The notes beneath the pieces are model-generated. The model searched no databases. It was not told where the DNA came from and saw only the letters and a list, made by a program, of their open reading frames with translations. A stretch of 64,000 nucleotides of DNA from Pseudomonadota bacterium (GTDB lineage: Bacteria > Pseudomonadota > Gammaproteobacteria > Burkholderiales > Burkholderiaceae_C), in assembly GCA_020161775.1 (NCBI GenBank), contig JAIUOW010000007.1:62001-126000 (forward strand). Reading direction: 5' to 3'. Both the position numbers and the translations under genes were made by a program. This document shows positions 14,288 to 62,027 of the stretch, piece after piece; position 1 is the stretch's first letter; each line of letters opens with the position of its first letter.

Positions 14288-14362
14288 CCCCCCTGAGCCG
14301 CTGCGCGGCTTCCCCCCCAGGGGGACGCCACCAGTGGCCCGGCGGAGCCGGTTCCACGGTGG
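14288..14362 (+). repeat. Structured post-stop repeat, copy 1 (after smpB)
   Basis: Starts at the base after the smpB TAA and runs in the smpB sense. Hairpin 1 is AGCCGC-TGC-GCGGCT, hairpin 2 a C-run/G-run pair, and hairpin 3 CCGGC-GGA-GCCGG enclosed by TGG/CCA and CCACC/GGTGG. TGG/CCA replaces CGG/CCG of the other copies, a compensated double change. Confidence 0.85.
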
Positions 14363-14375
14363 CCGCTGGCCGGGC

Positions 14376-15449
14376 TCAGCGCAACGTTGCCAGTGGGTGC
14401 GCGTGATCGGGCCAGGGGCTCACGAAGAACGGCTGAACCATTTCTGGCGTGACGTCTTCAATGCGCGGCGGGTTCCACCTGGGTGCGTGGTCCTTGTCCA
14501 CGGCCAGCGCGCGGATGCCTTCCACGGTTTCGCTGGCTGCGCCGGGGCGCAGATGGAAGCAGTGGCGAACCAGGTCGCGCTCCATGCGCAGGTCGTCGGC
14601 CAGGCCCATGGCGCGGCCGCGCCGCACCTGCTCCAGCACCACGTGCAGCATCAGCGGTGAGCGGTGGCGCAGCAGCGCTGCCGTCTCGCGCGCCCAATCC
14701 GAGGTGTCTGCCTCCAGGGCGGCGATGATCGCTGGCACGCTGTCCAGCGCGAAAAAATGGTCGATGGGACCACTGGCGCGCGCCAGCGCCGACTGCGCAG
14801 CTGCCGACTCGGCATCAACCTGCGCCGGCAGGGCCTGCGTTCCCAGGCTCACCAGGCTTTCCCACAGGTCGGGCAGGTCTTGCGACGGCATCATCACGTC
14901 TGCCAGCTGGGCCGCCAGGGCGTCCGCGCCGCCGATGACGCTGCCGGTCAGGGCCAGGTATTCCCCCATGTAGCCAGGGCAGCGCCCCAGGAAGAATCCA
15001 CCGCCGACGTCCGGAAAGAGTCCGATGTTGGTCTCGGGCATGGCCATCTTGGTGCGTTCGGTCACGATGCGCACCCTCGCGCCCTGCGAGATTCCCATGC
15101 CGCCGCCCATGACGATGCCATCCATGAAGGCAACGTAGGGCTTGGGATAGGTGTGGATCAGGTGGTTGAGCGCGTATTCCTCTGTGAAGAAATCTTCCAG
15201 CTGCGGATTGCCTGCGAGCGCCGACTGGTGGAAAAAGCGGATGTCTCCGCCAGCACAAAAGGCGCCGAAAACGCCCTCTTTGCCCGTGCCGCGAACCGCC
15301 ACGACTTCCACGGCCGGGTCATCACGCCACGCCAGCAACGCGGCCGTGAGCTCGCGCACCATACCGAGCGACAGCGCATTCAGCGCCTTGGGGCGGTTCA
15401 GCGTGATCAGGCCGGCACGGCCCCGGATTTCTGCCACTACATCGCTCAT
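14376..15449 (-). CDS. Enoyl-CoA hydratase/isomerase family protein, 3-hydroxyisobutyryl-CoA hydrolase type
   Basis: A 357-residue crotonase-fold protein. The oxyanion-hole segments are FGAFCAGGDIRFF and DGIVMGGGMGIS, and MPETNIGLFPDVGGGFFL is the signature of the 3-hydroxyisobutyryl-CoA hydrolase branch rather than classical enoyl-CoA hydratases; the length over 350 residues also fits. The branch hydrolyses 3-hydroxyisobutyryl-CoA in valine breakdown. A GGAGG Shine-Dalgarno precedes ATG 15449. It is followed at the 3' side by the repeat after smpB and preceded by a DMT transporter gene in the same direction. Confidence 0.85.
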   Translation of the reverse strand: MSDVVAEIRGRAGLITLNRPKALNALSLGMVRELTAALLAWRDDPAVEVVAVRGTGKEGVFGAFCAGGDIRFFHQSALAGNPQLEDFFTEEYALNHLIHTYPKPYVAFMDGIVMGGGMGISQGARVRIVTERTKMAMPETNIGLFPDVGGGFFLGRCPGYMGEYLALTGSVIGGADALAAQLADVMMPSQDLPDLWESLVSLGTQALPAQVDAESAAAQSALARASGPIDHFFALDSVPAIIAALEADTSDWARETAALLRHRSPLMLHVVLEQVRRGRAMGLADDLRMERDLVRHCFHLRPGAASETVEGIRALAVDKDHAPRWNPPRIEDVTPEMVQPFFVSPWPDHAHPLATLR

Positions 15450-15507
15450 TGAGAAACCTCCGTGCTGCGAACTGCGGTGCGAGCGCCTTCGGGCGGCCGA
15501 GCGGCGC

Positions 15508-16389
15508 TCATGCGCGTTGCCTCCAGCCAATCAGTTCATTGACCACCAGCGCACCCAGCACTAGAGCACCGCCGGCCAGCACGTTCGGGCCCGGTTGCTC
15601 GTTGGCGCCAAACCAGGCCAGCGCAATGCCAAAGATGATTTCCAGCAGCGCCAGCAATGAGACCTCGGGTGCCTTGAGCACGCGCGCGCAAATCACCGAC
15701 AAGGTGCAGGGAATGGCCAGTTGGACCAGGCCCAGCAGGCCCAGCCAGGCCACGTCGGTGGCGGTAGCCATCAAGGGGAATGACAGCGGCAAGGTCACTG
15801 CGCTGGAGATCACCGCGCCCACCAGAACGCAGGGCACCAGGTCCAGCTTTTCGCCGTGGGCCTGGCTGCGCTGCGTGACCGTCCACTGCACCGCGCCCGC
15901 GATGGGGACGCACAGGGCCACCAGCGAACCGATCAGCACGCCCGGCGCCCCAAGGCTCACCTGCGAGCCATACATCCAGCCGATGCCGATGCCGGCCACC
16001 ACGATCGCACCCCAGGTGCGCAACGGCAGCTTGTGGCCAATGAAAACACGGGCGATCAGTGCCGTGAACAGCGGGCCGAGCGCCATCGTCACCAGCACGT
16101 TGGCCACGGTGGTCAGCGTCAGCGCCACCATGAACGCGGTGAACATCACGCTCCAGCACACACCGGACAGCCAGAAGTACGGGCTCCTCCAGTGCATGTT
16201 GCGAAACACCGTGCGGCCTTGCCACAGCGGCAGGATCACCAGCAGCGACACCATGGTGAAAAAGCTGCGCCAGAACGTCACTTCGAAGCTTTTGGCGTGT
16301 TCCAGCTGGCGCGTCACCACGCCGGCGATGGACCACATCAGGGTCACCGCCACCATCAGCCAGACGGCCTGTCCGTGTTTGAGCGTCAT
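15508..16389 (-). CDS. DMT superfamily (EamA) transporter
   Basis: A 293-residue inner-membrane protein with about ten hydrophobic helices arranged as two EamA repeats (VTLMWSIAGVVTRQLEHAK near the N-terminus; a second half from about residue 150). No substrate-specific residues are recognisable; relatives export amino acids, metabolites or nucleotides. It is in line with typA upstream (82-bp gap holding a repeat) and the acyl-CoA hydrolase gene downstream (58 bp). Confidence 0.85.
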   Translation of the reverse strand: MTLKHGQAVWLMVAVTLMWSIAGVVTRQLEHAKSFEVTFWRSFFTMVSLLVILPLWQGRTVFRNMHWRSPYFWLSGVCWSVMFTAFMVALTLTTVANVLVTMALGPLFTALIARVFIGHKLPLRTWGAIVVAGIGIGWMYGSQVSLGAPGVLIGSLVALCVPIAGAVQWTVTQRSQAHGEKLDLVPCVLVGAVISSAVTLPLSFPLMATATDVAWLGLLGLVQLAIPCTLSVICARVLKAPEVSLLALLEIIFGIALAWFGANEQPGPNVLAGGALVLGALVVNELIGWRQRA

Positions 16390-16471
16390 GCGGACCGCCG
16401 CCGGGCCGCCCCAAGGCGGTCACGGCCCCCTCGGGGGGCAGCGACCACACGCAGTGAGGGAGCGTGGGGGT
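16390..16471 (-). repeat. Second post-stop repeat type, after typA
   Basis: GC-rich element filling the typA to DMT-transporter gap. Read on the minus strand it begins right after the typA stop, with CCACGC paired to GCGTG across a 9-nt loop, then GCCCCCCGAGGGGGC and CCGCC-TTG-GGGCGG. Its sequence is unrelated to the six-copy repeat but its placement rule is the same. Confidence 0.6.
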
Positions 16472-18297
<1,826 letters not shown>

Positions 18298-18301
<4 letters not shown>

Positions 18302-19245
18302 TTTTGGGTTTCCAGGATTTGCTGTATTTCAGGGGGGCTCAGCAGACGCCCCGGGATCAATTCGCCGGCTTTCACATGGGCCGTGCCCAGCAGCGTGCGC
18401 GGCGTGCCGAACACCGCCACCTGCTCGCTGTCGCGCCAATCGCCGCGCCGGCGCAGGCCGCTCAGGAAGCGTCCGGCATTGTCGCCATCCAGCGTGACGC
18501 TCTCGTGGCCGGGCAGCAGCGCCTCCAGCGGCAGCAGCCGGGCCAGGCGTTCGGGCTCGGCCATGGCTTCCAGCGCCTGCAGCGTGACGCATTGGGTCAC
18601 ATCAAACGGGCCGGTCGCTGTGCGCCGCAAGGCGGTCAGGTGGCCGCCGCATCCCAGGGCTTCGCCGATGTCTTCGCCCAGCGTACGGATGTAGGTGCCC
18701 TTGCTGCAATGCACGCGCAGCCGCACAAATGGCGCCTCGGCCTGCAGGCCGGCTTCCAGCAGTTCCAGCGAATGGATCGTCACCTCGCGCGCCTCGCGCT
18801 CCACCGTTTCGCCGTCGCGCGCGTACTCGTACAGGGCCTTGCCGTCGCGCTTGAGGGCGCTGTGCATGGGCGGCACCTGGCGCACCAGGCCGGTAAAACT
18901 GTCCAGCACCTGCACCAACTGGCCCAGCGTGCAGCGCACTGGCCGGGTGTCGATGACATCGCCCTCGGCATCGGCCGTGGATGTCCTCACGCCCAGGCGC
19001 ACGGTGGTCTCGTAGGTCTTGTCAGCGTCCAGGTGCAGCTGGCTGAATTTGGTGGCCGCGCCAAAGCACAGCGGCAGCACGCCGGTGGCCAGCGGATCCA
19101 GAGTGCCGGTGTGGCCCGCCTTTTCGGCGCGCAGCAGCCATTTGCATTTCTGCAGCGCGTTGTTGCTCGACAGGCCCAGCGGCTTGTCCAGCAACAGCAC
19201 CCCATGCACGGGGCGCCTCACGACCCTCGTGCGCGGCGCTGTCAT
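18298..19245 (-). CDS. truB: tRNA pseudouridine(55) synthase TruB
   Basis: A 315-residue enzyme making pseudouridine 55 in the T-loop of tRNAs. The catalytic Asp lies in [21 protein letters not shown] (given in parts: [16 protein letters not shown]), preceded by [15 protein letters not shown]; the thumb-loop region [12 protein letters not shown] and the C-terminal PUA-like part follow. Two bases separate it from rbfA upstream and it overlaps typA downstream, so it lies inside the operon. Confidence 0.96.
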
Positions 19246-19247
19246 TG

Positions 19248-19616
19248 CTATTCTTCGTCTTTGGAACGCGAAGCGACAGCCTGCGCAATCAGCGCATTCA
19301 TGTCGGCGGCACGCTCGGTGGTGCGGTCAAACACGAAATGCAGCGTGGGCACCGTGTGGATGTGCAGGCGCTTGAACAGGCCATTGCGCAGGAAACCCGC
19401 CGCATGGTTGAGAGCCTGCTCGCATTCCTGCGGATCGCCCACCAGCACGCTGAAGAACACCTTGGCATGGGCGTAGTCAGGCGTGACCTCGACCGAGCTC
19501 AGCGTCACCATGCCCAGCCGCGGATCCTTGACCTCGCGGATGAGCTCGGCCAGATCACGCTGGATCTGGTCGGCTACCTGGTAGCTGCGGTTGGGCTTGG
19601 CGGGCTTCTTTTTCAT
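19248..19616 (-). CDS. rbfA: 30S ribosome-binding factor A
   Basis: A 122-residue KH-type RNA-binding protein needed for late 30S maturation and cold adaptation. Recognisable segments are [34 protein letters not shown] and [10 protein letters not shown]. The N-terminus ([10 protein letters not shown]) is basic. It follows infB after a 105-bp gap that holds a structured repeat, and is 2 bp from truB. Confidence 0.95.
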
Positions 19617-19644
19617 GGCTCAGTACCCTGGGCTCCTTCGTGGG

Positions 19645-19721
19645 CCACCGCGGAACCGGCTCTGCCGGGCCGCCGGTGGCGCCCCCCTGGGGGGGAGGCG
19701 CCGAAGGCGCTTCGGGGGGGC
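19645..19721 (-). repeat. Structured post-stop repeat, copy 2 (between infB and rbfA)
   Basis: On the minus strand it starts directly after the infB TAA. Hairpin 1 is GCGCC-TTC-GGCGC and hairpin 3 CCGGC-AGA-GCCGG inside CCACC/GGTGG. It lies within an operon, so it is transcribed between infB and rbfA. Confidence 0.85.
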
Positions 19722-22586
19722 TTACAACGTCCTTGCGATTTCCTTGACCTCGAAGAACTCCAGCTGATCACCTTCCTTGATGTCGTTGTAGTTCTTGAGC
19801 TTGATACCGCACTCGAAGCCTTCCTTGACTTCGCGTACGTCGTCCTTCAGGCGCTTGAGCGTGTCGATGTCGCCGGTGTACACCACCACGTTGTCGCGCA
19901 GCAGGCGGAACTTCGCGGTGCGCGTGACCTGCCCCGAGGTGACCATACAGCCCGCCACGGTACCGATCTTGGACGCCACGAACACGGTGCGGATCTCGGC
20001 CGTGCCAATGACTTCCTCGCGCTTTTCAGGCGCCAGCATGCCCGACATGGCGGCCTTGAGCTCGTCCACCGCGTCATAGATGATGTTGTAGTAGCGGATG
20101 TCCACGCCATTGCCTTCGGCCAGCTTGCGCGCGCCGGCATCGGCCCGCGTGTTGAAGCCGATGATCACCGCCTTGGAAGCGATGGCCAGGTTGACGTCGG
20201 ACTCGCTGATGCCCCCCACGGCGGCATACACCAGCTGGACCTTCACCTCGTCGGTGGACAGCTTGAGCAGCGACGCGGCCAAAGCTTCCTGTGAACCCTG
20301 CACGTCGGCCTTGACAATGATGGGCACCATCTTGACTTCGCCAGCCGTCATGTCGGTGAACATGTTTTCCAGCTTGGCGGCCTGCTGCTTGGCCAGCTTG
20401 GTGTTGCGGAACTTGCCCGCGCGATAGGTCGCGATTTCACGTGCGCGGCGCTCGTCGGCCAGCACCATGAACTCGTCACCGGCTTGCGGCACCTCGGTCA
20501 GGCCCTGGATTTCCACCGGGATCGACGGGCCCGCTGTCTTGATGGGCCGGCCGTTTTCGTCCAGCATGGCGCGCACGCGGCCGTAGGTCTGACCCGCCAG
20601 CACCACATCGCCGGTCTTGAGCGTGCCGGACTGCACCAGCACCGTGGCCACCGGGCCGCGGCCCTTGTCCAGCTGCGCCTCGATCACCAGCCCCTTGGCC
20701 ATGGCATCCACCGGCGCCTTCAGTTCCAGCACCTCGGCCTGCAACAGTACCTGTTCCAGCAAGGCATCAATGCCAGCGCCGGTCTTGGCGGACACAGGCA
20801 CGAACGGTGATTCGCCGCCGTACTCTTCGGGAACGACCTCCTCGGCCACCAGTTCCTGCTTGACCCGGTCCGGGTTGGAGTCGGGTTTATCGATCTTGTT
20901 GATCGCCACCACGATGGGCACACCCGCAGCCTTGGCATGCTTGATGGCTTCCTTGGTCTGCGGCATCACACCGTCGTCGGCCGCCACCACCAGGATCACG
21001 ATGTCGGTGGCCTGTGCGCCACGGGCCCGCATGGCGGTGAACGCCTCGTGGCCTGGGGTGTCCAGGAAAGAGATCATCCCGCGCTCGGTTTCCACATGGT
21101 AGGCGCCGATATGCTGGGTGATGCCACCCGCCTCACCCGACGCCACCTTGGCGCGGCGGATGTAGTCCAGCAGCGAGGTCTTGCCGTGGTCCACGTGGCC
21201 CATGACGGTCACGACCGGTGCGCGCGGCAGCGGTTCGCCCTCGGCGGCGGCCACGTCCTGGTCGGTGAAGGCTTCGGGGTCGTCCAGCGCGGCCACGATG
21301 GCCTTGTGGCCCATTTCCTCGACCACGATCATGGCGGTGTCCTGGTCCAGCGGCTGGTTGATGGTGACCATCTGGCCCAGCTTCATGAGGTGCTTGATCA
21401 CCTCGGACGATTTCACGGCCATCTTGTGCGCCAGTTCGGCCACGGTGATGGTTTCGGGCACGTGGACCTCCAGCACCCGGGCTTCAACCGGTGCGGCCTG
21501 GACCTGCTCATCGCGCTGGTCACGGTCATTGCCACGGCGCCCACGGGGGCCGCCGCGCCAGTTGTTGCGCCCCACGCCGCCAGAGGCGTCGCCGCGCGTC
21601 TTGATTTCCTTCTTCTTGGCCGGGTCTCCCGCCCAGCTGGACGACAGCTTGGCGGACTTGACTTCCTTGCCAGCGCCGGGGCCGGCGGGTGCCGCGGCGC
21701 CAGGACGCGGCGCACCCGCAGCCGGCTTGTGCAGCGTGCCTTTCACGCCGGACTTGGCGGCTTCCGCCGCCTTGGCCACGGGCTTGGGTTCCTCGGGCTT
21801 CTTGGCAACCAGCACCTTCTTGGGCGTGGACATCATCGAGCGGATGGCGGCAGCCTCGGCTTCGGCCTTGCGGCGGCGCTCACCCAGATCGGCCGCGCGC
21901 GCGGCTTCCTCGTCGGCGCGTGCCTTGGACTCGGCAGCGGCTTTCTCGCGGGCTTCAGTCTGGGCACGGGCTTGCGCCTCGGCCTTGGCGGCGGCCTCAT
22001 CGGCCACATCTTTGCCAGCCGGCGCCACGGCTTGCGCCTTGGCCTCGGCCTGCTTCTGTTCGTTGGCAGCCTGGGCGGCCTTTTCCGCAGCCTCACGCTC
22101 GCGCGCTTCCTGCTCCTCGCGCTGGCGGCGCTTTTCGGCCAGCTCTTCTTCCTGGCGGCGGATCAGCTCGGCCTGGCGGCGGGCTTCTTCCTCGCGGCGT
22201 GCGAGTTCGGCGTCGTCAATGAGCGGGGCCGACGGCGCCTCGGCGGCGGGCTCGGGGGCTTCGACCACGGCGGTGTCAGAGCCCTCGTCGCGCTTGATGA
22301 AGGTGCGCTTCTTGCGCACTTCGACCTGGATCGTGCGGGCCTTGCCGGACGAATCCGCCTGCTTGATCTCGCTGGTGGACTTTTTCACGAGCGTGATCTT
22401 CTTGCGCTCGGGCGAAGCCGTGCCGTGGCTGGCCTGCAGGTAGCCCAGCAGCTTTTGCTTGTCGGCTTCGCTGAGGGCGTCCGCCGGGGACGCCTTGGGC
22501 ACGCCTGCGCTACGCAATTGCTCAAGCAGCGTCTCGGTTGATTTCTTGAGTTCGGATGCAAACTCGGCGACGGTCGTACTGGACAT
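19722..22586 (-). CDS. infB: Translation initiation factor IF-2
   Basis: A 954-residue initiation GTPase. The N-terminal domain ([20 protein letters not shown]) is followed by a long Ala/Glu/Arg-rich, probably coiled-coil region from about residue 120 to 260, a basic Gly/Arg-rich spacer, then a second IF2_N copy near residue 375. The G domain starts near 455 with [16 protein letters not shown], then DTPGHEAF and NKIDKPDSN; domains II-IV follow with the fMet-tRNA-binding C-terminus. Length is typical for Burkholderiales, which have expanded N-termini. It sits 24 bp after nusA. Confidence 0.98.
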
Positions 22587-22610
22587 GTGTCGTGTTACCT
22601 TTCATGACCG

Positions 22611-24107: not shown

Positions 24108-24108
24108 T

Positions 24109-24693
24109 TCACAACTCTCCTGTTTGATCGGTCGGCGACCGGCCGGGCTTGCGCCCCTTGAAATCCACGATCGAAGCCAGCCGCGCCTCTTTCAGCTCGT
24201 CCAGCGTAAAACCCAGTACCTGCAAGGGCGCGGGCACGCGCTTCCTGCTGACCTTCTGCCCCGGCTTGACGGCGGGCTCGTCGCTCCAGACGATCTGCCA
24301 GCCACCGGCGGCGGCGCGCTCCAGCGTGCCCCGAAACTTCTTGCGGTTGGCGGCCACCTGGCCACCCGCGGCGCTGCCCATGGGCGCCTTGAGCGTGACG
24401 TCGATCACCTCGCCGGCGAAACGCTCGAAATCCTGTTCGCGGCGAAGGGGCCGGTCAATGCCCGGCGACGACACTTCAAGCCGCTTGTATTCAACTTCCT
24501 CGACTTCCAGCGCGAACTGCAGCTGGCGCGTGACTTTCTCGCAGTCTTCGACGTTGACAAACTGCTCGGGCACGCCGGCCTGCCAGGGCAGGTCGATCGT
24601 GATGCGCAACAGGCCACCGGCGGAGCGTTCGATCTCCACCAGCTCATAGCCCAGCCCGGTCACGGTTTGTTCAACGATCTCCTGCAGTGCCAC
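24109..24693 (-). CDS. rimP: Ribosome maturation factor RimP
   Basis: A 194-residue protein required for 30S maturation. The N-terminal domain includes [12 protein letters not shown] and LRITIDLP; the conserved middle is [21 protein letters not shown]. The C-terminal half is longer than in E. coli and ends in a basic tail KGRKPGRSP. The start is GTG at 24693. It is the first gene of rimP-nusA-infB-rbfA-truB-typA, with a promoter at 24807-24835 and a leader terminator between promoter and gene. Confidence 0.95.
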
Positions 24694-24759
24694 TTTTACC
24701 TGTTACTCCAATGCCACACCCATGCTCCATCCACGTCGCCGGGCCAAAAGCAAACGCCC

Positions 24760-24791
24760 AAAAAAAACGGGCGGTGAATACCCGCCCGTTT
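24760..24791 (-). terminator. Intrinsic terminator between yejF and rimP, inside the predicted rimP leader
   Basis: On the minus strand AAACGGGCGG pairs perfectly with CCGCCCGTTT around a 7-nt loop and runs into eight consecutive U. It lies 50 bp after the yejF stop and can end that operon, but it also lies downstream of the rimP promoter, about 10-40 nt into the expected leader. Confidence 0.85.
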
Positions 24792-24806
24792 GGTCGTGAA
24801 CTATGG

Positions 24807-24835
24807 ATTGTACTGCGTAAAGGCTTGATTTGCAA
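24807..24835 (-). promoter_or_regulatory. Putative sigma-70 promoter of the rimP-nusA-infB operon
   Basis: TTGCAA (24830-24835) and TACAAT (24807-24812) on the minus strand with a 17-bp spacer. The expected start is near 24800, giving a leader of about 107 nt that contains the terminator at 24760-24791. The -35 begins 5 bp after the yejF stop codon. Confidence 0.6.
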
Positions 24836-24839
24836 CGAG

Positions 24840-26432: not shown

Positions 26433-27469
26433 TTTTCGGCCTTTCGCGGGTCCAGCGCGTCGCGCAGCGCGTCACCCATGAAGGTCAGCAGCAGCAGCGT
26501 GAGCACCAGCACGCCAAAGGTGGACAGCGAAATCCACCACGCATCAATGCTGTTCTTGCCCTGGCTGAGCAGCTCGCCCAATGACGGCGTACCGGGTGGC
26601 ACGCCCAGGCCGAGGAAGTCGAGCGAGGTCAGCGCCAGGATGGCCGCGCTCATGCGAAATGGCAGGAAGGTCACCACCGGCGTCAGGCTGTTGGGCAGGA
26701 TGTGGCGCCACATGATGCGCAGGTTGCCCACGCCCAGGGCACGCGCGGCCCGCACATAGTCCATCTGCCGGTTGCGCAGGAATTCCGCCCGTACATAGTC
26801 CGACAACCCCATCCAGCCGAACAGGCTGAGCAGCACCAGCAGCAGCGCCACGCTGGGCGCAAAGACGGCGCTGAAGATGATCAGCAGGTACAGCTCGGGC
26901 ATGGCGCCCCAGATCTCGATGAAACGCTGGAACGCCAGGTCGGTCTTGCCGCCGAAATAGCCCTGGATTGCCCCCGTGACCACGCCGATCAGCACGCCAA
27001 TGGCCGTGAGCGCCAGGCCGAACAGCACGTTCAGGCGGAAACCATAGATCAGCTGCGCCAGCAGATCGCGGCCGCGGTCGTCCGTGCCCAGCAGGTTGTC
27101 CAGCGTGGGCGCCGACGGGTTGGGCGATTTGGCGAAGTAGTTGATGGTCTTGGCGCCGTAGGGATTGGGCGGGTAGATGGCCCAGTTGCCGTCCTTGCGC
27201 AGCTGCTCGCGGATGAAAGGATCCAGGTAGTCGGTGGCGGTCTGGAAGTCGCCGCCGAAGGTGGTCTCGGGGTAGTCGGTGACCAGCGGCAGGTAGTAGC
27301 TGCCGTTGTAGCGCACTACCAGCGGCTTGTCGTTGGAGATGATTTCCGCGAACAGGCTCAACACCACCAGCGCGCAGAACAGCACCAGGCTCACAAAGCC
27401 CAGCCGGTTGCGCCGGAAGCGCTGCCAGGCGCGGCGCGTGGGGGATGCGGAGTTAGTCGAACCGTACAC
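26429..27469 (-). CDS. yejE: Oligopeptide ABC transporter permease YejE
   Basis: A 346-residue inner-membrane permease with about six helices and the binding-protein-dependent permease loop (EIWGAMPELYLLIIFSAVF and the EFLRNRQMDYVRAARALG cytoplasmic segment). A large periplasmic loop lies between the first two helices (about residues 45-140), as in YejE/OppC proteins. The start is GTG at 27469, overlapping the yejB stop by 17 bp, which points to coupled translation. Confidence 0.92.
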   Translation of the reverse strand: MYGSTNSASPTRRAWQRFRRNRLGFVSLVLFCALVVLSLFAEIISNDKPLVVRYNGSYYLPLVTDYPETTFGGDFQTATDYLDPFIREQLRKDGNWAIYPPNPYGAKTINYFAKSPNPSAPTLDNLLGTDDRGRDLLAQLIYGFRLNVLFGLALTAIGVLIGVVTGAIQGYFGGKTDLAFQRFIEIWGAMPELYLLIIFSAVFAPSVALLLVLLSLFGWMGLSDYVRAEFLRNRQMDYVRAARALGVGNLRIMWRHILPNSLTPVVTFLPFRMSAAILALTSLDFLGLGVPPGTPSLGELLSQGKNSIDAWWISLSTFGVLVLTLLLLTFMGDALRDALDPRKAEK

Positions 27470-28481
27470 GGGGGTCCACCCAGACGTAGCAGAGGTCGGA
27501 GATGAGCTTGGTCACAAGGCCGATCAGCGTGAAAAGGTACAGCGTTCCCATCACGACCGGGTAGTCGCGCCGGATCACGCTTTCGTAGCTCAGCAGCCCC
27601 AGCCCGTCCAGCGAGAACAGCGTCTCGATCAGCAGCGAACCCGTGAAGAACGCGCCAATGAACGCCGCCGGAAAGCCGGTGACGATCGGGATCAGCGCGT
27701 TGCGGAAGATGTGCTTCCACAGCACCTGGCGGTCGGCCAGGCCCTTGGCACGCGCCGTCAGCACGTACTGCTTGCGGATTTCCTCAAGGAAGGCGTTCTT
27801 GGTCAACATGGCCGTGACCGCAAAGCTGCCCAGCACCATGGCCGTGACCGGCAGGGTGATGTGCCAAAGGTAGTCCACGATGCGCGCGCCCCAGCTCAAT
27901 TCGTCCCAGTTGCTGGAGGTGAGGCCGCGCAGCGGAAACCACTGCAGTTGCCCGCCAAAGATCACCAGCAGCGCCACCCCCAGCACAAAGCCCGGTATCG
28001 CATAGCCCACCAGCACCAGCAGGGTCGTCACCAGGTCAAAGCGCGTGCCGGCCCGCACCGCCTTGGCCACGCCAAGCGGCACCGCCACCAGGTAGCTGAT
28101 GAAAAACGTCCACAGCCCCAGGCTGATGGACACCGGCAGCTTCTCCCGCACGAGCGTCCAGACGTCCTTGTTCTGGAAGAAGCTCTTGCCCAGGTCAAAC
28201 CGCGCGTACTGGCCCAGCATCTGCACGAAGCGTTCGTGCGCGGGTTTGTCAAAACCGTACAGCGCCTTGATCTGCTCCAGCCGCTTCGGGTCCACGCCCT
28301 GCGCGCCGCGGTAACTCAACCCCCCGCCCTCGGCCGCGCCACCCGTGCCCGCCTTGGCTTCGGCCAGGTACTGCTCCACCGGCCCGCCCGGCACGAACTG
28401 CGTGACCACAAAAGTCACCAGCAGCACCCCCAGCAGCGTGGGCACCATGAGCAACAGGCGTTTGAAGATATAAGCAGCCAT
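27453..28481 (-). CDS. yejB: Oligopeptide ABC transporter permease YejB
   Basis: A 342-residue inner-membrane permease of the OppB type: MAAYIFKRLLLMVPTLLGV at the N-terminus, FVPGGPVEQYLAEA, and the coupling segment LEEIRKQYVLTARAKGL near residue 230. About six helices. It is separated from yejA by 105 bp containing a structured repeat, and overlaps yejE by 17 bp. Confidence 0.92.
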   Translation of the reverse strand: MAAYIFKRLLLMVPTLLGVLLVTFVVTQFVPGGPVEQYLAEAKAGTGGAAEGGGLSYRGAQGVDPKRLEQIKALYGFDKPAHERFVQMLGQYARFDLGKSFFQNKDVWTLVREKLPVSISLGLWTFFISYLVAVPLGVAKAVRAGTRFDLVTTLLVLVGYAIPGFVLGVALLVIFGGQLQWFPLRGLTSSNWDELSWGARIVDYLWHITLPVTAMVLGSFAVTAMLTKNAFLEEIRKQYVLTARAKGLADRQVLWKHIFRNALIPIVTGFPAAFIGAFFTGSLLIETLFSLDGLGLLSYESVIRRDYPVVMGTLYLFTLIGLVTKLISDLCYVWVDPRVRFD

Positions 28482-28505: not shown

Positions 28506-28583
28506 CGCCGCCGCGGAACCGGCTTAGCCGGGCCGCTGGGGGCGCCCCCTGGGGGGAGGCGGCCGCAGGCCGCTTCGGGGGGG
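28506..28583 (-). repeat. Structured post-stop repeat, copy 3 (between yejA and yejB)
   Basis: On the minus strand it begins 3 nt after the yejA TGA. Hairpin 1 is GCGGCC-TGC-GGCCGC and hairpin 3 CCGGC-TAA-GCCGG. The outer stem is less perfect here (CCCCC against GGCGG). It lies within the yej operon. Confidence 0.85.
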
Positions 28584-28586
28584 TCG

Positions 28587-30395
28587 TCATTTCTTCCACC
28601 AGGTGTCGATGGCCCAGGCTTCGCTGTTGGCGTACGGGGGGCTCACCGCTGGCAATGCCAGGCGCCAGGCGTTGTAGGCAATGCGGTGTGTGCCGGCGGT
28701 CCACTGCGGGATGAGGTAATGGCTATGCGCAATGATGCGTTCCAGCGCCCGGCAGGCCGGCAGCAGCTCGGCCTTGGTGCGCGCTCCGGTCATGCGCCGA
28801 ATCATGTCGTCCACCGCCGGGCTCTTGACGCCCGCGTGGTTGCCGGAGTCTTCGGTGTCGGCGGCCTTGCTGCCGAAAAGATCGGCAAACTCCTGGCCCG
28901 GCGTGTGGGTGCCCTGGTAGGCCAGCGAGGTGATTTCAAAGTCGAATTTCTGCAGCCGCTGCTGGTACAGCGCAAAGTCCACCGGCCGGAAGCGCAGCTG
29001 GATGCCCAGCTTTTCCAGATTGCGCATCCATGGCGAGACCACGCGCGCACCGGATTCGTTGCTGTCCATGTATTCCAGGGTGAAGGCCTCGCCCTTGCTG
29101 TTGCGCAGCACGCCGCCCTGCACCTCCCAACCCGCCTGGCGCAGCAGCTCCCGCGCGCGGCGCAGGTTGGCACGCAGCGATGAATCGCCATCGGTGCGCG
29201 GCGGCACGTACATGGGGCCAAACACCGCATCAGGCACCTTGCCGCGCCAGGGCGCCAGCAGCGCCAGCTCCTCGGGGCCGGGCTCGCCCGTGGCCTGGCA
29301 ATCGGTGTTGCCGAACAGGCCCGCCACGCGCTGGTAGGCGTTGTAGAACATCTGCCGGTTCATCCACTCGTAGTCCACGGCCAGGCCCAGGGCTTCGCGC
29401 ACACGGGGGTCCTTGAGCTTGTCCTTGCGGCTGTTGAGCACATAGCTCTGGAAGCCCGCCGGCAGCCGGTGCTTGAATTCGCCCTTGACCAGCTCGCCGG
29501 AGGAAAAGCGTTTGCCGTTCACGCGGCGCGCCCAGTCGCCGGCGGAAAAGAAGCGCATCAGGTCAAATTCACCCGCCTTCAGGGCCTCCAGCCGCGCCGT
29601 GTTGTCCTTGTAGATCTTGACCGTGATGCGGTCGAAATTGGACGTGCCGCGCTTGACGTTCAGGTCGCGCGCCCAGTAGGACGGGTCGCGCACGTAGGTG
29701 ATGTCCTTGCCGAAACGCACCGGGCCGATCCTGTACGGGCCGCTGCCGATGGGGATGTCCATCACGACCTGGTCAAAGCGCTTGGGCTTGCCGTTGTCCA
29801 TGCCCCACTTGCGGCTGAACACCGGCAGACCGCCGACCGTCAGCGGGATTTCCCGGTTCTGGCGCTTGAAACGGTAACGCACCGTGCGCTCGTCCAGCAC
29901 GTCCAGCCCGGCCACGTCGTCCAGCGCCGTCTTGTAGGCGGGCGACGTGTAGGGCCCCATCAGCGTGTCAAAGCTGTGCTTCACATCGGCGGCCAGCACC
30001 GGGTCGCCGTTGTGAAAGCGCGCCTGCGGGCGCAGGCGGAAGGTGGCCGACAGGCCGTCGGGCGACACGTCCACATCCTCGGCCAGCAGGCCGTAGCCGG
30101 CGCCGGTTTCGTCCAGCGAGCCGGCCAGCAGGCTGTCAAACATCAGGCCTGACAGGTAGGCCGGTGCCGAGCCCTTGATGGTGAAGGGGTTGTATTTGTC
30201 GAAGGTGGAAACCCGCAGGTTGCTCACCAGGCGCAGATCGCCACCCTTGGGCGCATCAGGGTTCACATAACTGAAGTGCGTGAAGCCCGGCGGGTACTTC
30301 AGGTCGCCCCACAGCGCATAGCCATGGGCCGCCCACAGCGGGGACGACACACCCGACGACATGACCCACAACAGCCCGGCCAGCAATTTGCGCAT
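28587..30395 (-). CDS. yejA: Oligopeptide ABC transporter substrate-binding protein YejA
   Basis: A 602-residue periplasmic binding protein (SBP_bac_5 family). The signal peptide [20 protein letters not shown] is cleaved around residue 22. YejA marks include [32 protein letters not shown] and [15 protein letters not shown]. It is the first gene of yejABEF and is divergent from fabI with 37 bp between the start codons. Likely substrates are oligopeptides; the specific ligand cannot be told. Confidence 0.93.
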
Positions 30396-31215: not shown

Positions 31216-31290
31216 CCCCCCGAAGCGCCTGCGGCGCCTCCCCCCAAGGGGGGCGCCACCAGCGGCCCGGCGAAGCCGGTTCCGCGGTGG
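31216..31290 (+). repeat. Structured post-stop repeat, copy 4 (after fabI)
   Basis: Begins at the base after the fabI TAA, in fabI sense. Hairpin 1 is GCGCC-TGC-GGCGC, hairpin 2 a CCCCCC-AA-GGGGGG pair, and hairpin 3 CCGGC-GAA-GCCGG enclosed by CGG/CCG and CCACC/GGTGG. It lies between the convergent fabI and decarboxylase genes. Confidence 0.85.
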
Positions 31291-31314
31291 CCCTGGAATT
31301 GCGCTGCGGACAGG

Positions 31315-43889: not shown

Positions 43890-43966
43890 TTCCCCCCGAA
43901 GCGGCCTTCGGCCGCCTCCCCCCAAGGGGCGCCACCAGCGGCCCGGCAAAGCCGGTTCCGCGGTGC
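43890..43966 (+). repeat. Structured post-stop repeat, copy 5 (after the cysB-like gene)
   Basis: Begins at the base after the TGA of the regulator gene, same sense. Hairpin 1 is GCGGCC-TTC-GGCCGC and hairpin 3 CCGGC-AAA-GCCGG inside CGG/CCG and CACC/GGTG. Confidence 0.85.
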
Positions 43967-43984
43967 CCCTGACAAATACACGTT

Positions 43985-55040: not shown

Positions 55041-55049
55041 AGCCCGTGA

Positions 55050-56282: not shown

Positions 56283-56346
56283 CCCCTGTACCGCCTGAAC
56301 CAAACGTCACACTCTAGCCGCGCTGCAGGGCCGAGGCAAACGCCAC

Positions 56347-56352
56347 TACACT
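56347..56352 (+). promoter_or_regulatory. Putative -10 (TACACT) of leaderless argA
   Basis: TACACT ends exactly 7 nt before ATG 56360, with no Shine-Dalgarno. No recognisable -35 lies 17 bp upstream. Confidence 0.35.
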
Positions 56353-56359
56353 CCTGCCG

Positions 56360-57706: not shown

Positions 57707-57877
57707 TCCTTTTCAGGCGAAGCAGGGATGGGCGCGGCCTGCCTGGCCTGACAAAGGATTGAATGTGCAGGGGAACCCTGCGGCCGCATCGCGGTCACAG
57801 GGAAAAGATACACTTGCTTACGACCTCCCTCGCGCCACGATATGTATCTGGCGGCGCCCCGCTGCGCTGCCTGTCCG

Positions 57878-59524
57878 ATGACCTTGCAACACCCTTTTTC
57901 TTTCCCGCCCCGCCTCGCCTCTTCCGGTCTCGTGCGGCTCTGGCTGTTTGCCCTGCTGCTGGGCGCCCTGCTCCTGGCCATGCCTGCCGGCCGCCTGGGG
58001 GCCCAGACGGTGTACGGCGTGGGCCTGCAGGGCTCCAACAACCGGCTCTTCTCTGTCAACCCCGCCACTGGCGCGGCGACCAACCTGTGCGCGCTGGGCC
58101 TGTCCAGCGTGGCCAACGGCGTGAGTCCGCTGGACGGGCTGGTCTACTACATCGAAGGTGGCACGGGCAGCAACCCGGACCTGCGCCGCATCAATCCCGC
58201 CACCTGCGCCGACCAGTTCCTGGGCACCACCAACCTGGTGGGCAGCATCATCCGCATGACCTTCTGCCCTGACGGGCGGCTGTACGCGGCGTCCAACACC
58301 GGCACGGGCACCAACAATTCGGCATCGCTGTACATCTGGGAAATCAACCCGCTGACGGGCCAGCGCGTGCGCCGCATCACGCTGAGCAGCGTGCGCGTGG
58401 AAGGCAGCGGGGACATGACCTGCGTGGACAACGGCGACCTGTACATCCTGGCCAACGCCACGCGCGGAAGCTCGGCGTACCGCCTGTACCGCGTGGCCGG
58501 CACGGACCTGCAGACCGTGGCCAACAACGGCGCCGTCACGGCCACCGGCATCGGCACCAACCTGGGCCTGACCGGCACGCCCAACGGGCTGACGGAAGTG
58601 ACCAACGCGGTCACCGGCTGCGCCGCCAATATCAACACCTACCCCTGCCTCATTGCCAGCACAGGCACCACCAACCGCACCTGGGGGATCAACACCCAGA
58701 ATGGCTCGGCCGCCAGCATCGGGGTGACGGGCTTCACGCTGAACGACCTGTCGCGCTCGTTCCCCGTGGACGCGCAGGTGGCCAAGGCGCGCACCAGCCC
58801 CGCCGTCATGACCCAGGGCGACAACCTGACCATCAGCTACACGATCACGGTGACCAACGCGGGGCCGGGCCTGATCGGCGGCGGCGCGACCGTGACCGAT
58901 ACACTGAACCCGGCGATCTTCAACGCGGCCGCGGCCACGTGGACCTGCGCGGTGACCAACGCGGGCGACGCCAACAGCAGCATCGACACCGCCTGCAACG
59001 CAGCCAGCGGCACCGGCAACATCAATCAGACCGTCACCCTGGCACCGGCCGGCGTCATCACCTACACGCTGCAGGCGCCGGTGCTCAACACCTTCAACGG
59101 CACGGCCACCAACGCCGCCACGATGGCGCTGGTGCAGAACGTGACCGACCCGGTGCCCGGCAACGACACGGGCGACGCGCCCGGCACCACGGTGAACGCG
59201 GCGACGGTACTTACGATCTCCAAGGCCAACACGGGCACGGCCATCGTGGCCGGCACCACCACGAGCTACGTCATCACCGTGGCCAACACCGGCTTTGCCG
59301 ATGCCGACGACACCGCCGTGCGCGACGCCGACACCGACGGCCTGGCCTGCACGCAGGTGGCGTGCACGAGCGCCGTGGGGCCGGGCGCCGCCTGCCCGCC
59401 GCCGGCCAACGTGACCATCGCCAACCTGCAGAACCCCGGCCCGTCGGGCGGCATCCGGCTGCCGGATTTTCCGTATGGCACGACGGTGACGTTCACGGTC
59501 ACCTGCCTGGTCGAAAACCCCTGA
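57878..59524 (+). CDS. DUF11-repeat secreted/surface protein
   Basis: A 548-residue export protein. The hydrophobic core LVRLWLFALLLGALLLAMPA after a short basic-poor N-tail is a signal peptide, cleaved around AQT. Residues about 40-290 look like a beta-propeller or repeat-like part (YGVGLQGSNNRLFSVNPATG); about 300-430 and 440-548 are two DUF11 beta-sandwich domains (KARTSPAVMTQGDNLTISYT and ISKANTGTAIVAGTTTSYVI). No sorting tail is visible after VTCLVENP. ATG 57842, in frame, is an alternative. It is oriented with argA, 171 bp downstream. Confidence 0.75.
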   Translation: MTLQHPFSFPPRLASSGLVRLWLFALLLGALLLAMPAGRLGAQTVYGVGLQGSNNRLFSVNPATGAATNLCALGLSSVANGVSPLDGLVYYIEGGTGSNPDLRRINPATCADQFLGTTNLVGSIIRMTFCPDGRLYAASNTGTGTNNSASLYIWEINPLTGQRVRRITLSSVRVEGSGDMTCVDNGDLYILANATRGSSAYRLYRVAGTDLQTVANNGAVTATGIGTNLGLTGTPNGLTEVTNAVTGCAANINTYPCLIASTGTTNRTWGINTQNGSAASIGVTGFTLNDLSRSFPVDAQVAKARTSPAVMTQGDNLTISYTITVTNAGPGLIGGGATVTDTLNPAIFNAAAATWTCAVTNAGDANSSIDTACNAASGTGNINQTVTLAPAGVITYTLQAPVLNTFNGTATNAATMALVQNVTDPVPGNDTGDAPGTTVNAATVLTISKANTGTAIVAGTTTSYVITVANTGFADADDTAVRDADTDGLACTQVACTSAVGPGAACPPPANVTIANLQNPGPSGGIRLPDFPYGTTVTFTVTCLVENP

Positions 59525-59582
59525 GCGCGCCGCTGCGGACCGTCCTGCGTCCCACCCTTCCGTGTAGGACCGATTCGCCGGC

Positions 59583-60089
59583 TCAGCCCCGGCGAGCCCA
59601 CCGGCGCGCCAGCAGAAGCAGCAGCACCGCACTGAACACCGCAAAACAAACGAATGACCAGTTGGCGATCGACAGGCCCAGGAAGGTCCAGTCGATCTTG
59701 GTGCAGTCGCCGCTGCCCTTGAAGATCATGGGCACGGCGCGCTTGAGCGGGAAGGTCTCGATCATCCCGTAGAAGTCGCGCCCGCAGGACACCACCTCTG
59801 GCGGGTACCACTGCAGGAAGCTCTGGCGGGCGGCGACGAACGCTCCGAAGCCCGACATCAGCAGCGCCAGCACGCCCAGGCCCAGGTGCGCCGCCCGGCC
59901 CTTGAAGATCGCGGCCAGCAGGGCCAGCACGCCCACCAGGATCAGCGCGTAACGCTGCACGATGCACATGGGGCACGGTTCCAGCCCCACCCCGTGCTGC
60001 AGGTACAGGCCAAAGGCCAACATGGCCACACAGGCGGCTGCAATCGCCGCGAACACCCGGCGCGGGTGCGTATCAAACCAGTTCAGCAA
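59583..60089 (-). CDS. dsbB: Disulfide bond formation protein B
   Basis: A 168-residue inner-membrane quinone-dependent oxidase that reoxidises DsbA. Four helices, the first Cys pair in LEPCPMCIVQRYAL (CPMC) and the second pair in VVSCGRDF and SGDCTKIDW are all present. The start is TTG at 60089, supported by GAGGA 6 nt upstream. It lies 29 bp after cysA in the same direction and may be transcribed with the sulfate operon. Confidence 0.93.
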   Translation of the reverse strand: MLNWFDTHPRRVFAAIAAACVAMLAFGLYLQHGVGLEPCPMCIVQRYALILVGVLALLAAIFKGRAAHLGLGVLALLMSGFGAFVAARQSFLQWYPPEVVSCGRDFYGMIETFPLKRAVPMIFKGSGDCTKIDWTFLGLSIANWSFVCFAVFSAVLLLLLARRWARRG

Positions 60090-60100
60090 GATGCGTCCTC
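60090..60100 (-). promoter_or_regulatory. Shine-Dalgarno that decides the dsbB TTG start
   Basis: GAGGA (60096-60100) followed by six bases and TTG on the minus strand. No ATG or GTG lies in frame nearby, so the TTG start depends on this site. Confidence 0.65.
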
Positions 60101-60118
60101 AAACACGGCGCAGCCGTG

Positions 60119-61135
60119 TCAGGCCGCGCCTTCTTCTTCAAACAAACGGGCTTTGCGCGGCGTAACCACCAGCGTTTCACCCTCTTTCAACCCCAGGTCC
60201 CGGAACTGCTGCGCGGAGATCTGCGCCTCAATCAACGGGTCACGGTGGGCATTGTCCGATGGTTTGGCGTCTTCCACCGGAATAAGTTCCAGCCGGGCCA
60301 CCGGGCCCACGCTGATGGCGCGGTCCAGCTGCACCACGATGCCCTGGCTGCCGGGAGCATAACGCTGCACGTCCAGGTCATACGGGCGCACATAGCCGTG
60401 ACCTGGGATCAGGTTCACATCGCCCAGAAAGCCGTGCACGAACGGGCTGGCCGGGTGTTCCCACACGTCCTGGGGCGTGCCCACCTGCTCGATTTGCCCC
60501 TGGTTGATCACGACCACGCGGTCGGCCACCTCCAGCGCTTCTTCCTGGTCGTGTGTCACGAAGATGCTGGTCACGTGCAGCTCGTCGTGCAGGCGGCGCA
60601 GCCAGCGGCGCAGTTCCTTGCGCACCTTGGCGTCCAGCGCCCCAAAAGGTTCGTCCAGCAGCAGCACCTTGGGTTCCACCGCCAGGGCGCGGGCCAGCGC
60701 GATACGCTGGCGCTGGCCGCCCGACAGCTGCGCCGGGAAGCGGTCGGCCAGCCAGTCCAGCTGCACGAGCTTGAGCAGGTCGTGCACCTTCTGCTGAATC
60801 TGCGTTTCAGGCGGGCGCTGGCCGCGCGGCTTGACGCGCAGGCCAAAGGCCACGTTTTCAAACACCGTCATGTGCCGGAACAGGGCGTAGTGCTGGAACA
60901 CGAAGCCCACCTGACGCTCGCGCACATGCTTGGTGGTGGCGTCCTCGCCGCTGACGGCAATGCTGCCCTGGTCGGGCGTCTCCAGGCCGGCAATGATGCG
61001 CAGCAGGGTTGTCTTGCCGCAGCCCGACGGGCCCAGCAGCGCGACCAGCTCGCCCGATTCGATGTCCAGCGACACGTCGCGCAAGGCGCGGAATTCGCCA
61101 AACTGCTTGCTGATATTGCGGATTTCAATGCTCAT
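60119..61135 (-). CDS. cysA: Sulfate/thiosulfate ABC transporter ATPase CysA
   Basis: A 338-residue ATPase. Walker A is [14 protein letters not shown], signature [15 protein letters not shown] and Walker [13 protein letters not shown]; the C-terminal regulatory domain begins near residue 240 with [15 protein letters not shown]. It starts inside cysW with an 11-bp overlap. With Sbp, CysT and CysW it forms the sulfate importer of the inner membrane. Confidence 0.95.
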
Positions 61136-62027
61136 GGTGTTGTGCGATGGATTTGATGGCAAGGGTGACAAGGGCCAGCAGCGTCAGCAGCGACGCCACG
61201 GCAAACGCGGCCACGGACTGGTACTCGTTGTAGAGCACCTCCACATGCAGCGGCATGGTGTTGGTCTGCCCGCGGATGTGGCCTGAGACGACCGACACCG
61301 CGCCAAACTCGCCCATGGCCCGCGCGTTGCACAGGATCACGCCGTACACCAGGCCCCACTTGATGTTGGGCAGCGTCACGCGCCAGAAGGTCTGCCAGCC
61401 GGTGGCGCCCAGCACGATGGCAGCCTGCTCTTCGTCGCTGCCCTGCGCCTGCATCAACGGGATCAGCTCGCGCGCAATGAACGGGAAAGTGACGAAGATG
61501 GTCGCAAGGATGATGCCGGGCACGGCGAACACGATCTTGATGTCGTGCGCCGCCAGCCACGGCCCAAACCAGCCCTGCGCGCCAAACACCAGCACATAGA
61601 TCAGGCCTGCCACCACGGGTGACACCGAAAACGGCAGGTCCACCAGCGTGGTCAGGAAGGCCTTGCCACGGAATTCATACTTGGCAATGGCCCAGGCCGC
61701 CGCAATGCCAAACACCAGGTTCAGCGGCACGGCGATGGCTGCGGTAATTAGCGTCAGCCGGATGGCCGACCAGGCATCGGGCTCGCGCAGGGCTTCCCAG
61801 TAGGCCCCTGCCCCCTTGCGCAGCGCCTCGGCAAACACGGCCGCCAGCGGCAGCACCAGGAACAGCAGCATGAACACCAGCGCCACGCCAATCAGCGTGC
61901 GCCGCACCCACGGTGTTTCGGATATCGGGGACAAAGGTCGGGAACGCCGCGGAACCGGCTTTGCCGGGCCGCTGGCGTTGCCCCCTTGAGGGGGAGGCGG
62001 CGGCAGCCGCTTCGGGGGTGTTTTCAT
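61125..62027 (-). CDS. cysW: Sulfate ABC transporter permease CysW with repeat-encoded N-terminus
   Basis: A 300-residue permease with six helices (from about residue 45) and the EAA-type loop [23 protein letters not shown] (in parts). I chose ATG 62027 because it overlaps the cysT stop as ATGA; an ATG 12 nt earlier is possible. Residues about 3-27 ([13 protein letters not shown] and following) are translated from a structured repeat lying where the gap between genes should be, so this N-terminus is an accretion rather than conserved sequence. Confidence 0.9.
61943..62018 (-). repeat. Structured post-stop repeat, copy 6 (inside the start of cysW)
   Basis: On the minus strand it follows the cysT stop by about 5 nt and is translated as the CysW N-terminus. 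Hairpin 1 is GCGGC-TGCC-GCCGC, hairpin 3 CCGGC-AAA-GCCGG inside CGG/CCG, and the outer stem is AACGCC/GGCGTT, a compensated version of CCACC/GGTGG. Confidence 0.85.

What the first reader, a model, noticed from the sequence alone, without database searches (positions are those of the whole stretch)
14288..62018. Six-copy structured repeat whose stems covary
Six ~75-bp copies (14288, 19645, 28506, 31216, 43890, 61943) share a three-hairpin plan. Hairpin 1 reads AGCCGC-TGC-GCGGCT, GCGCC-TTC-GGCGC, GCGGCC-TGC-GGCCGC, GCGCC-TGC-GGCGC, GCGGCC-TTC-GGCCGC and GCGGC-TGCC-GCCGC: bases change but pairing is kept. In hairpin 3 CCGGC/GCCGG is constant while its loop is GGA, AGA, TAA, GAA, AAA or AAA. Around it CGG/CCG becomes TGG/CCA in copy 1, and CCACC/GGTGG becomes AACGCC/GGCGTT in copy 6. 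Compensatory changes imply selection on the folded form, as RNA or as single-stranded DNA of a mobile repeat. I recall similar GC-rich repeats in Comamonadaceae but know of no assigned function.
Basis: seen in the sequence. Interest (0 to 1): 0.78.

Follow-up and report, generated by a model that had tools for sequence, protein, structure and literature searches.

The report
Stop-codon hairpin repeat in bacterial operons
A roughly 77-letter, three-hairpin sequence is scattered through the genomes of one group of bacteria, usually placed just after the stop signal of a gene, and it probably sets how much of that gene's message survives compared with the next gene in the same operon.

Summary
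The six copies form a sharply defined family: model scores are 75.9-96.2 bits and the next window hit is 17.5. Covariation is strong: a test that keeps the tree finds 7 significant pairs, all in the structure, though none in hairpin 2. The genome holds 49 copies.

By my gene caller, 40 of 49 copies here and 62 of 72 in relatives start within -10 to 15 nt of the stop codon of the gene on the same strand. Between co-directional genes they are sense 33 to 3 and 58 to 3. Many appear operon-internal: infB-rbfA, cysT-cysW, solute-binding protein-permease pairs.

Best explanation: an intercistronic RNA element that protects the upstream cistron's 3' end and uncouples the next gene. It works like E. 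coli REPs but is not shown to be one: longer, untagged, no linked RAYT found. It is probably the published, functionally unassigned repeat BRE; that identity could not be tested. Wobble evidence for an RNA target is mixed, so a DNA-level contribution stays open. No expression data were available.

The parts
14288..14363 (+). Element copy 1; starts directly after the smpB stop codon; convergent with the next gene
   Evidence: R1 82.7 bits; left gene SmpB; stop-to-element distance 0
13814..14287 (+). smpB, gene upstream of copy 1
   Evidence: NCBIfam NF003843 212.1 bits, cut-off 130
19644..19719 (-). Element copy 2, between infB and rbfA
   Evidence: R1 85.2 bits; distance 2 to infB stop, 27 to rbfA start
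19722..22586 (-). infB (IF-2), gene upstream of copy 2
   Evidence: TIGR00487 872.8 bits, cut-off 424.4
19248..19616 (-). rbfA, gene downstream of copy 2
   Evidence: TIGR00082 79.5 bits, cut-off 51.15
28507..28582 (-). Element copy 3, between an ABC solute-binding protein gene and a yejB-like permease gene
   Evidence: R1 75.9 bits; distances 4 and 25
28587..30395 (-). ABC solute-binding protein (YejA-like by position), upstream of copy 3
   Evidence: best NCBIfam E 1.1e-26, below its cut-off; 'YejA' inferred from the neighbour
27453..28481 (-). YejB-like permease, downstream of copy 3
   Evidence: NF011712 447.6 bits, cut-off 445
31216..31291 (+). Element copy 4; starts directly after the fabI stop codon; convergent with the next gene
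   Evidence: R1 87.4 bits; distance 0; FabI NF005422 483.7 bits, cut-off 440
43892..43967 (+). Element copy 5, between a CysB-family regulator gene and an aminotransferase gene
   Evidence: R1 80.4 bits; distances 2 and 30; NF009327 and NF006569 over cut-off
61943..62019 (-). Element copy 6, between cysT and the gene that is cysW by position
   Evidence: R1 96.2 bits; distances 4 and 35; same site filled in L349 and L359
62024..62818 (-). cysT, gene upstream of copy 6
   Evidence: TIGR02139 418.5 bits, cut-off 246.1, scanned as 62027-62887; start at 62818 by the gene caller
61125..61907 (-). gene downstream of copy 6, cysW by position
   Evidence: found by the gene caller; its product was not run against a family library; 22 of 30 relatives have a match at E<=1e-70, and in all 22 it lies after cysT

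Best explanation
It is a portable, sense-oriented intercistronic 3'-end element. Right after translation of the upstream gene ends, the mRNA folds into GC-rich hairpins whose first paired base lies about 12 nt past the stop codon, about where a terminating ribosome's footprint should end (recalled). The block stops 3'-to-5' exonucleases, so the upstream cistron outlives the downstream one; mRNA 3' ends reaching it would come from endonuclease cuts or Rho-dependent termination further on. By pushing stop and start codons apart it also removes translational coupling, so the next gene must start from its own ribosome-binding site. The result is a higher ratio of upstream to downstream product. 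Shown here: covariation, placement, orientation, gene context, inheritance at some sites, and filled and empty sites within one genus-level group. Inferred: action as RNA, operon membership of the flanking genes, exonuclease blocking and the effect on expression.
For: Placement: 40 of 49 own and 62 of 72 family copies start -10 to 15 nt from a sense stop codon. Two further own copies have a sense ORF with a stop 4 and 0 nt before (L067, L079); in L078 the model clipped the element's start (by eye). Within their spacers 43 of 45 own copies lie within 10 nt of the left gene, 16.7 expected by uniform placement; 60 of 68 against 15.5 in the family. Orientation between co-directional genes: sense 33:3 and 58:3 (p 2e-7 and 3e-14). 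In convergent pairs, where no ribosome-binding site limits placement, the C-run end is nearer its stop in 35 of 38 (1 reversed, 2 ties). Context: 25 of 31 co-directional own cases leave 54 nt or less to the next start, little room for a promoter. Of 20 such pairs outside the window scanned with Pfam (of 27), 8 have a solute-binding protein upstream, and in 5 of these the next gene is a transporter part (L019, L024, L036, L068, L073); one is AhpC-type then an AhpF-like reductase (L020). Peripla_BP_6-like and TctC proteins: 11 of 108 upstream genes against 1 of 107 background genes (p 0.005). No T-tract in 45 of 49 own copies. Maintenance: the AlaC-like/hom site has a hit in 27 of 30 loci. At hom-thrC 9 of 30 loci have an ATGA stop/start overlap, 17 an element-like hit plus a new spacer, 3 a simple hairpin, 1 a bare spacer. 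At infB-rbfA 10 of 30 relatives carry a terminator-like hairpin in the same place (my reading).
Against: No expression data. Wobble test in this family: G-U 21 against A-C 33, not what selection on sense RNA alone predicts. Ten of the 20 scanned pairs have no obvious ratio logic (for example YidC-MnmE, gyrB-like, ABC ATPase-DUF1631), nor do smpB and fabI; the three TctC genes precede enzymes. The solute-binding comparison covers two families only, the Pfam lists are cut at 25 families, and the background comes from named contigs alone. Sites turn over: the element is absent from cysT-cysW in 20 of 22 and from infB-rbfA in 29 of 30 relatives, so it is dispensable at a given site. Placement is looser in the other sets: 61 of 98 (A7), 46 of 74 (A8), 10 of 37 (A6). 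E. coli REPs under 16 nt from a stop are reported to lower, not raise, upstream output (PMC12306157, passages and introduction).
Confidence: 0.5

Rival explanations
1. Ribosome-stalling repressor: the hairpins just after the stop codon stall the terminating ribosome, as reported for E. coli REPs under 16 nt from a stop, and lower upstream expression.
For: Same distance range (median 4 nt in the two main sets). Published REP result quoted in PMC12306157 (passages seen).
Against: Upstream genes include many solute-binding proteins, which are usually abundant (recalled). In this genome the upstream stops are TAA-rich (18 of 40, against 8 of 52 window genes), a mark of efficient termination (recalled).
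Confidence: 0.15
2. Selfish or passively spread repeat (MITE- or REP-like): it inserts at random and only copies between a stop codon and the next ribosome-binding site survive.
For: 49 dispersed copies; variable occupancy; tandem arrays in the second family; a TGACATGA-like repeat on both sides at hom-thrC, best seen in L415 and L400 (read by eye).
Against: Random insertion does not explain sense orientation 33:3 and 58:3 or stop anchoring in convergent pairs 35:1. No linked transposase found. Orthologous maintenance with pairing kept.
Confidence: 0.17
3. Unconventional transcription terminator or attenuator: the element ends a fraction of transcripts after the upstream gene.
For: At infB-rbfA 10 of 30 relatives have a terminator-like hairpin in the same position (my reading); 9 of 40 own copies near a stop lie before a convergent gene.
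Against: T-rich tract after the element in only 4 of 49 and 10 of 72; many copies lie between closely spaced co-directional genes such as infB and rbfA.
Confidence: 0.1
4. DNA-level structure: arms are kept complementary by template-switch mutation or because a protein reads the hairpin in DNA; the mRNA is incidental.
For: On the tree 95 direct Watson-Crick to Watson-Crick double changes, against 20 single changes to G-U, 26 to A-C and 25 to other mismatches; no G-U preference in this family. Template switching can create and repair hairpins (PMC8794818, abstract).
Against: Sense-orientation bias and stop anchoring; G-U excess in the second family (30 against 4, or 16 against 4 without its one dominant pair).
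Confidence: 0.08

Closest known systems
BRE, beta-proteobacterial repeat element (Hot et al. 2011, PMC3110155)
   Same: About the same length (75-91 bp), GC-rich, dispersed, mostly intergenic; reported in Polaromonas, Acidovorax, Delftia, Rhodoferax and Bordetella; tandem arrays, as seen here in the second family.
   Different: Bordetella BREs average 69% GC (own copies here 73-86%). The sections read give no structure, stop-codon anchoring or function, and the BprJ transcript runs opposite to both flanking genes in its Table 1. The BRE sequence is not in the held text, and 25 lexA loci (one published BRE site) had no hit, so identity is likely but untested.
E. coli REP / BIME
   Same: Repeated palindromic, extragenic, often near stop codons and inside operons; proposed roles in mRNA stability and ribosome stalling (PMC12306157, introduction and passages).
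   Different: E. coli REPs are given as 14-40 nt; this is one 77-position three-hairpin unit. In E. coli 446 of 4,072 RepRanger REPs (260 of 496 in an earlier study it quotes) lie within 15 nt of a stop, against 40 of 49 here. No linked RAYT found.
GTAG/CGTC-tagged REPs (PMC3733652)
   Same: Dispersed palindromic repeats near gene ends.
   Different: GTAG near the ends in 2 of 49 and CGTC in 7 of 49 own copies; that paper names Bordetellae among untagged REP-like cases (passage seen).
galE 3'-end hairpin of the E. coli gal operon (PMC9239205)
   Same: A hairpin at a cistron junction that blocks 3'-to-5' exonuclease after Rho-dependent termination (abstract and one section read): the mechanism proposed here.
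   Different: A single site, not a dispersed family.

Membership tests
BRE (Hot et al. 2011) | Unit of about 75-91 bp, mostly intergenic | tested here: met
   77 model positions; own copies span 74-82 nt; 46 of 49 outside gene calls, and 2 of the other 3 calls hide a sense gene ending before the element
BRE (Hot et al. 2011) | Present in Polaromonas, Acidovorax, Rhodoferax and other Comamonadaceae | tested here: met
BRE (Hot et al. 2011) | Present in Bordetella, often in tandem | tested here: inconclusive
   74 of 268 genomes of the unnamed family f4 have it, with tandem copies in L281 and L282; genus names are not given
BRE (Hot et al. 2011) | Copies next to lexA in the pertussis group | tested here: inconclusive
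   0 hits in 25 lexA loci of f4 genomes; whether a pertussis-group genome was among them is unknown
BRE (Hot et al. 2011) | Sequence identity to the published BRE | not testable with these tools
   Sequences are in a supplement; supplement look-ups are capped at 0
REP | Extragenic, palindromic, many similar copies | tested here: met
REP | Short (14-40 nt in E. coli) unit | tested here: not met
   Unit of 77 model positions, 26 pairs in three helices
REP | Linked RAYT (Y1 transposase) gene | tested here: not met
   One Y1_Tnp gene in this genome, flanked by other palindromes; tblastn with that protein hits no other fetched locus. Other genomes were not searched for Y1_Tnp
REP | GTAG or CGTC terminal tag | tested here: not met
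   2 and 7 of 49 own copies, 5 and 9 of 72 family copies
Intrinsic terminator | T-tract directly after the hairpin | tested here: not met
   4 of 49 own, 10 of 72 family
Known Rfam family | Reaches a gathering score | tested here: not met
   No element hit in the window; none of 5 matches at E<=5 in 8 loci lies on an element
MITE | Terminal inverted repeats and target-site duplication | tested here: inconclusive
   C-run start and GGTGGC end are not inverted repeats (by eye); a possible 8-nt duplication at one site only (by eye)

The most novel reading that the evidence does not exclude
A portable operon-tuning module: a three-hairpin RNA element, confined to a few related families, repeatedly gained right after stop codons and nearly always in the sense direction, including at stop/start overlaps such as hom-thrC. 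There it turns a translationally coupled pair into two independently started cistrons and sets their ratio. Spread may be guided by the transcript's 3' end or by translation termination rather than by a classical transposase.
Probability: 0.22. Interest if true: 0.82.

Novelty: new variant of a known kind. Interest (0 to 1): 0.6.

Why it matters
If it works as proposed, many operons in Comamonadaceae and a second family of the order carry a removable, copy-and-paste control of product ratios. Orthologous filled, simple-hairpin and empty sites, such as hom-thrC in one genus-level group, make an old question directly testable: whether REP-like repeats are parasites or expression parts. It could also give a function to a repeat published in 2011 without one.

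Tried and rejected
Rfam family: none. RAYT-driven REP: the only Y1 transposase gene of this genome is flanked by different palindromes. Phage or plasmid carriage: 1 contig with the exact core pattern in the 2.9-million viral collection; one copy as query gives no phage match and 5 of 72,556 plasmid records, all replicons of 478 kb or more from Variovorax or Diaphorobacter. The stop codon supplied by the element: rejected, because infB ends at the same residue and cysT within one residue with and without it, and stop usage before elements in A5+A7 (TGA 80, TAG 19, TAA 18 of 117) is close to named-contig background (548, 120, 76 of 744); own copies differ (TAA 18 of 40). Pairing of the 5' C-run with the G-run: in the minimum-energy fold of 4 of 6 window copies, but covariation favours the local hairpin 2: when the last G is A its local partner is T in 12 of 16, while C-run column 2 stays C in 16 of 16. 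BRE identity by lexA synteny: no result. A tRNA control for wobble pairs was started but not completed, so the wobble test has no control.

Limits. Gene calls come from a home-made codon-score caller trained on the window; it hid two sense genes behind antisense ORFs (L067, L079). Orientation counts use only copies with a gene call on both sides. Some scanned proteins are cut at locus ends. Copies in A7 come from an exact-pattern scan, so its hairpin 3 is biased; A7 and A8 are used only for placement, gene comparisons and pooled pair counts. A-C counts were printed merged with a pair-type counter and worked out by hand; over all five sets they are G-U 129, A-C 84, with 37 of the G-U at one pair. 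Site classes are my reading. The expectation of about 1 shared upstream gene in 179 (14 seen at >=60% identity) is a rough estimate of mine. Large genome searches scored only 12-17 candidates per genome, so they give lower bounds.
Full report
What is there. The six copies exist as described. A covariance model (R1) from 12 genome copies finds exactly six in the window, 75.9-96.2 bits, with the next hit at 17.5. The genome has 49 copies (150 of 10,291 first-look candidates scored). Of the relatives searched, 27 of 35 other same-family genomes have it and 0 of 24 genomes of other families in the order. In an even draw 13 of 399 genomes of the order had hits (9 in f1, 3 in f4, 1 in f3), and 2 of 369 of the class, both f1 and one of them this genome. 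Within f4, 74 of 268 genomes have it, in 7 of 43 genera. The large searches scored 12-17 candidates per genome, so these are lower bounds.

Structure. The plan is a C-run, hairpin 1, hairpin 2 (C-run/G-run) and hairpin 3 (outer, middle and inner stems). In 72 copies from relatives 18 of 26 pairs change on both sides, 211 cells against 59.6 in shuffles, and sliding the partners destroys it. In own copies it is 15 of 26 pairs and 76 cells against 18.2. In the second family it is 6 of 26 pairs and 25 cells against 4.2. All three alignments were fitted to the model. With a null that keeps the tree (121 own and family copies, 40 replicates, so E is resolved to 0.025), 7 pairs are significant and all 7 belong to the structure: one in hairpin 1, six in hairpin 3. 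Nineteen pairs, hairpin 2 included, are not significant. Hairpin 2 rests on the T-A changes at its base. Single-sequence folding shows hairpins 1 and 3 in 5 of 6 window copies and hairpin 2 in copy 1 only; z-scores run from -1.0 to -3.4. At cysT-cysW the copies in this genome, L349 and L359 share an AACGC/GGCGTT outer stem, so they look orthologous, while in L349 hairpin 1 has been replaced by another hairpin (by eye).

RNA or DNA. [quoted passage not shown] In this family G-U and A-C cells are 21 and 33; in the second family 30 and 4, or 16 and 4 without one dominant pair. At the AlaC-like/hom site they are 7 and 10, at hom-thrC 16 and 4. No RNA control was completed. So the wobble test does not decide.

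Placement. In this genome 40 of 49 copies lie -10 to 15 nt from the stop of a gene on the same strand. Two more (L067, L079) show a well-scoring sense ORF ending 4 and 0 nt before; L078 is clipped at its start. In relatives it is 62 of 72. Between co-directional genes the element is sense in 33 of 36 and 58 of 61, and over all five sets in 215 of 240. Between convergent genes the C-run end is nearer its own stop in 35 of 38 (set A6 not examined). From stop to the first paired base of hairpin 1 the median is 12.5 nt, quartiles 11 and 14, range 1-23. Placement is looser in A6, A7 and A8 (10 of 37, 61 of 98, 46 of 74), partly from tandem arrays and locus ends.

Neighbours. Window pairs are infB-rbfA, solute-binding protein-yejB-like, cysT-cysW and a CysB-family regulator-aminotransferase; smpB and fabI are followed by convergent genes. 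Of 27 co-directional pairs elsewhere in the genome 20 were scanned with Pfam. Eight have a solute-binding protein upstream: before an ABC ATPase (L019, L024), DctM (L036), a permease (L068), DctQ (L073), or enzymes (TctC: L034, L035, L071). Two more look like a main and an auxiliary subunit (AhpC-type/reductase L020; molybdopterin oxidoreductase/ferric-reductase-like L038). Ten show no such logic. Peripla_BP_6-like and TctC proteins are 11 of 108 upstream genes against 1 of 107 background genes (p 0.005); other solute-binding families could not be compared because the lists are cut. Fourteen of 179 upstream genes elsewhere are >=60% identical to one of 41 own upstream genes, about 1 expected by my rough estimate.

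Filled and empty sites. At cysT-cysW 2 of 22 relatives have the element. At infB-rbfA, of 30 relatives, 1 has a degenerate element, 10 a terminator-like hairpin, 14 a gap of 41 nt or less and 5 other spacers (my reading). In f4 genus g128, 43 genomes were searched and 30 hom-thrC loci read. Nine have an ATGA stop/start overlap (confirmed by gene calls in L424), 1 a bare spacer with a new GTGGAG, 3 a simple hairpin, and 17 an element hit at E<=1, 5 of them with a reduced hairpin 3 and one (L419) weak. Gene names are from NCBIfam (homoserine dehydrogenase, threonine synthase, alanine-transaminase-like). The site before hom has a hit in 27 of 30 loci.

Mechanism. The element has no T-tract in most copies, sits between closely spaced genes with little room for a promoter, points with the gene, and starts about where a terminating ribosome's footprint should end. 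The simplest reading is a 3'-end block against exonucleases plus uncoupling of the next gene, as reported for the galE hairpin (PMC9239205, abstract and one section read) and proposed for REPs (PMC12306157, introduction read). Ribosome stalling, reported for REPs under 16 nt from a stop, predicts the opposite effect on the upstream gene and is the main functional rival.

Known or new. The likeliest published match is BRE (PMC3110155; abstract, three sections and passages read), whose authors left its function open. Identity could not be tested. None of the listings from the text searches made names a paper that describes its structure or stop-codon anchoring; most subscription papers are not covered.

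Noticed in passing
L369-L398 (infB-rbfA junctions): Ten of 30 same-family genomes carry a terminator-like AAACCCCGCC...GGCGGGGTTTG hairpin between infB and rbfA, where this genome has the element (my reading).
   Followed up: partly
L375, L380 (infB-rbfA junctions): Two other genomes carry a different spacer rich in GACGCGAAG/CTTCGCG-like inverted pieces at the same site, perhaps another repeat family.
   Followed up: no
L009 1081-1920: A single Y1_Tnp (RAYT-like) gene flanked by AATTGGGGTCAGATTCCAATT-type palindromes, perhaps a separate REP system.
   Followed up: partly
L101, L112, L359, L369 right flanks: Some copies continue with an extra GGCCTGCTCCGCGGCC-like hairpin, a possible fourth hairpin.
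   Followed up: no
window and G000:C8:86359-99496: Copies cluster: six in this 64-kb window and five within about 13 kb on contig C8.
   Followed up: partly
own-genome copies: Stops just before the element are TAA in 18 of 40 against 8 of 52 window genes, p 0.002; in relatives 18 of 117 against 76 of 744.
   Followed up: partly
L007 514-664: A group II intron D1-D4-7 match (122.9 bits) about 0.8 kb from an element copy.
   Followed up: no
L281, L282, L284, L261: In the second family the element forms short tandem arrays of 3-4 copies, spaced 80-124 nt.
   Followed up: partly
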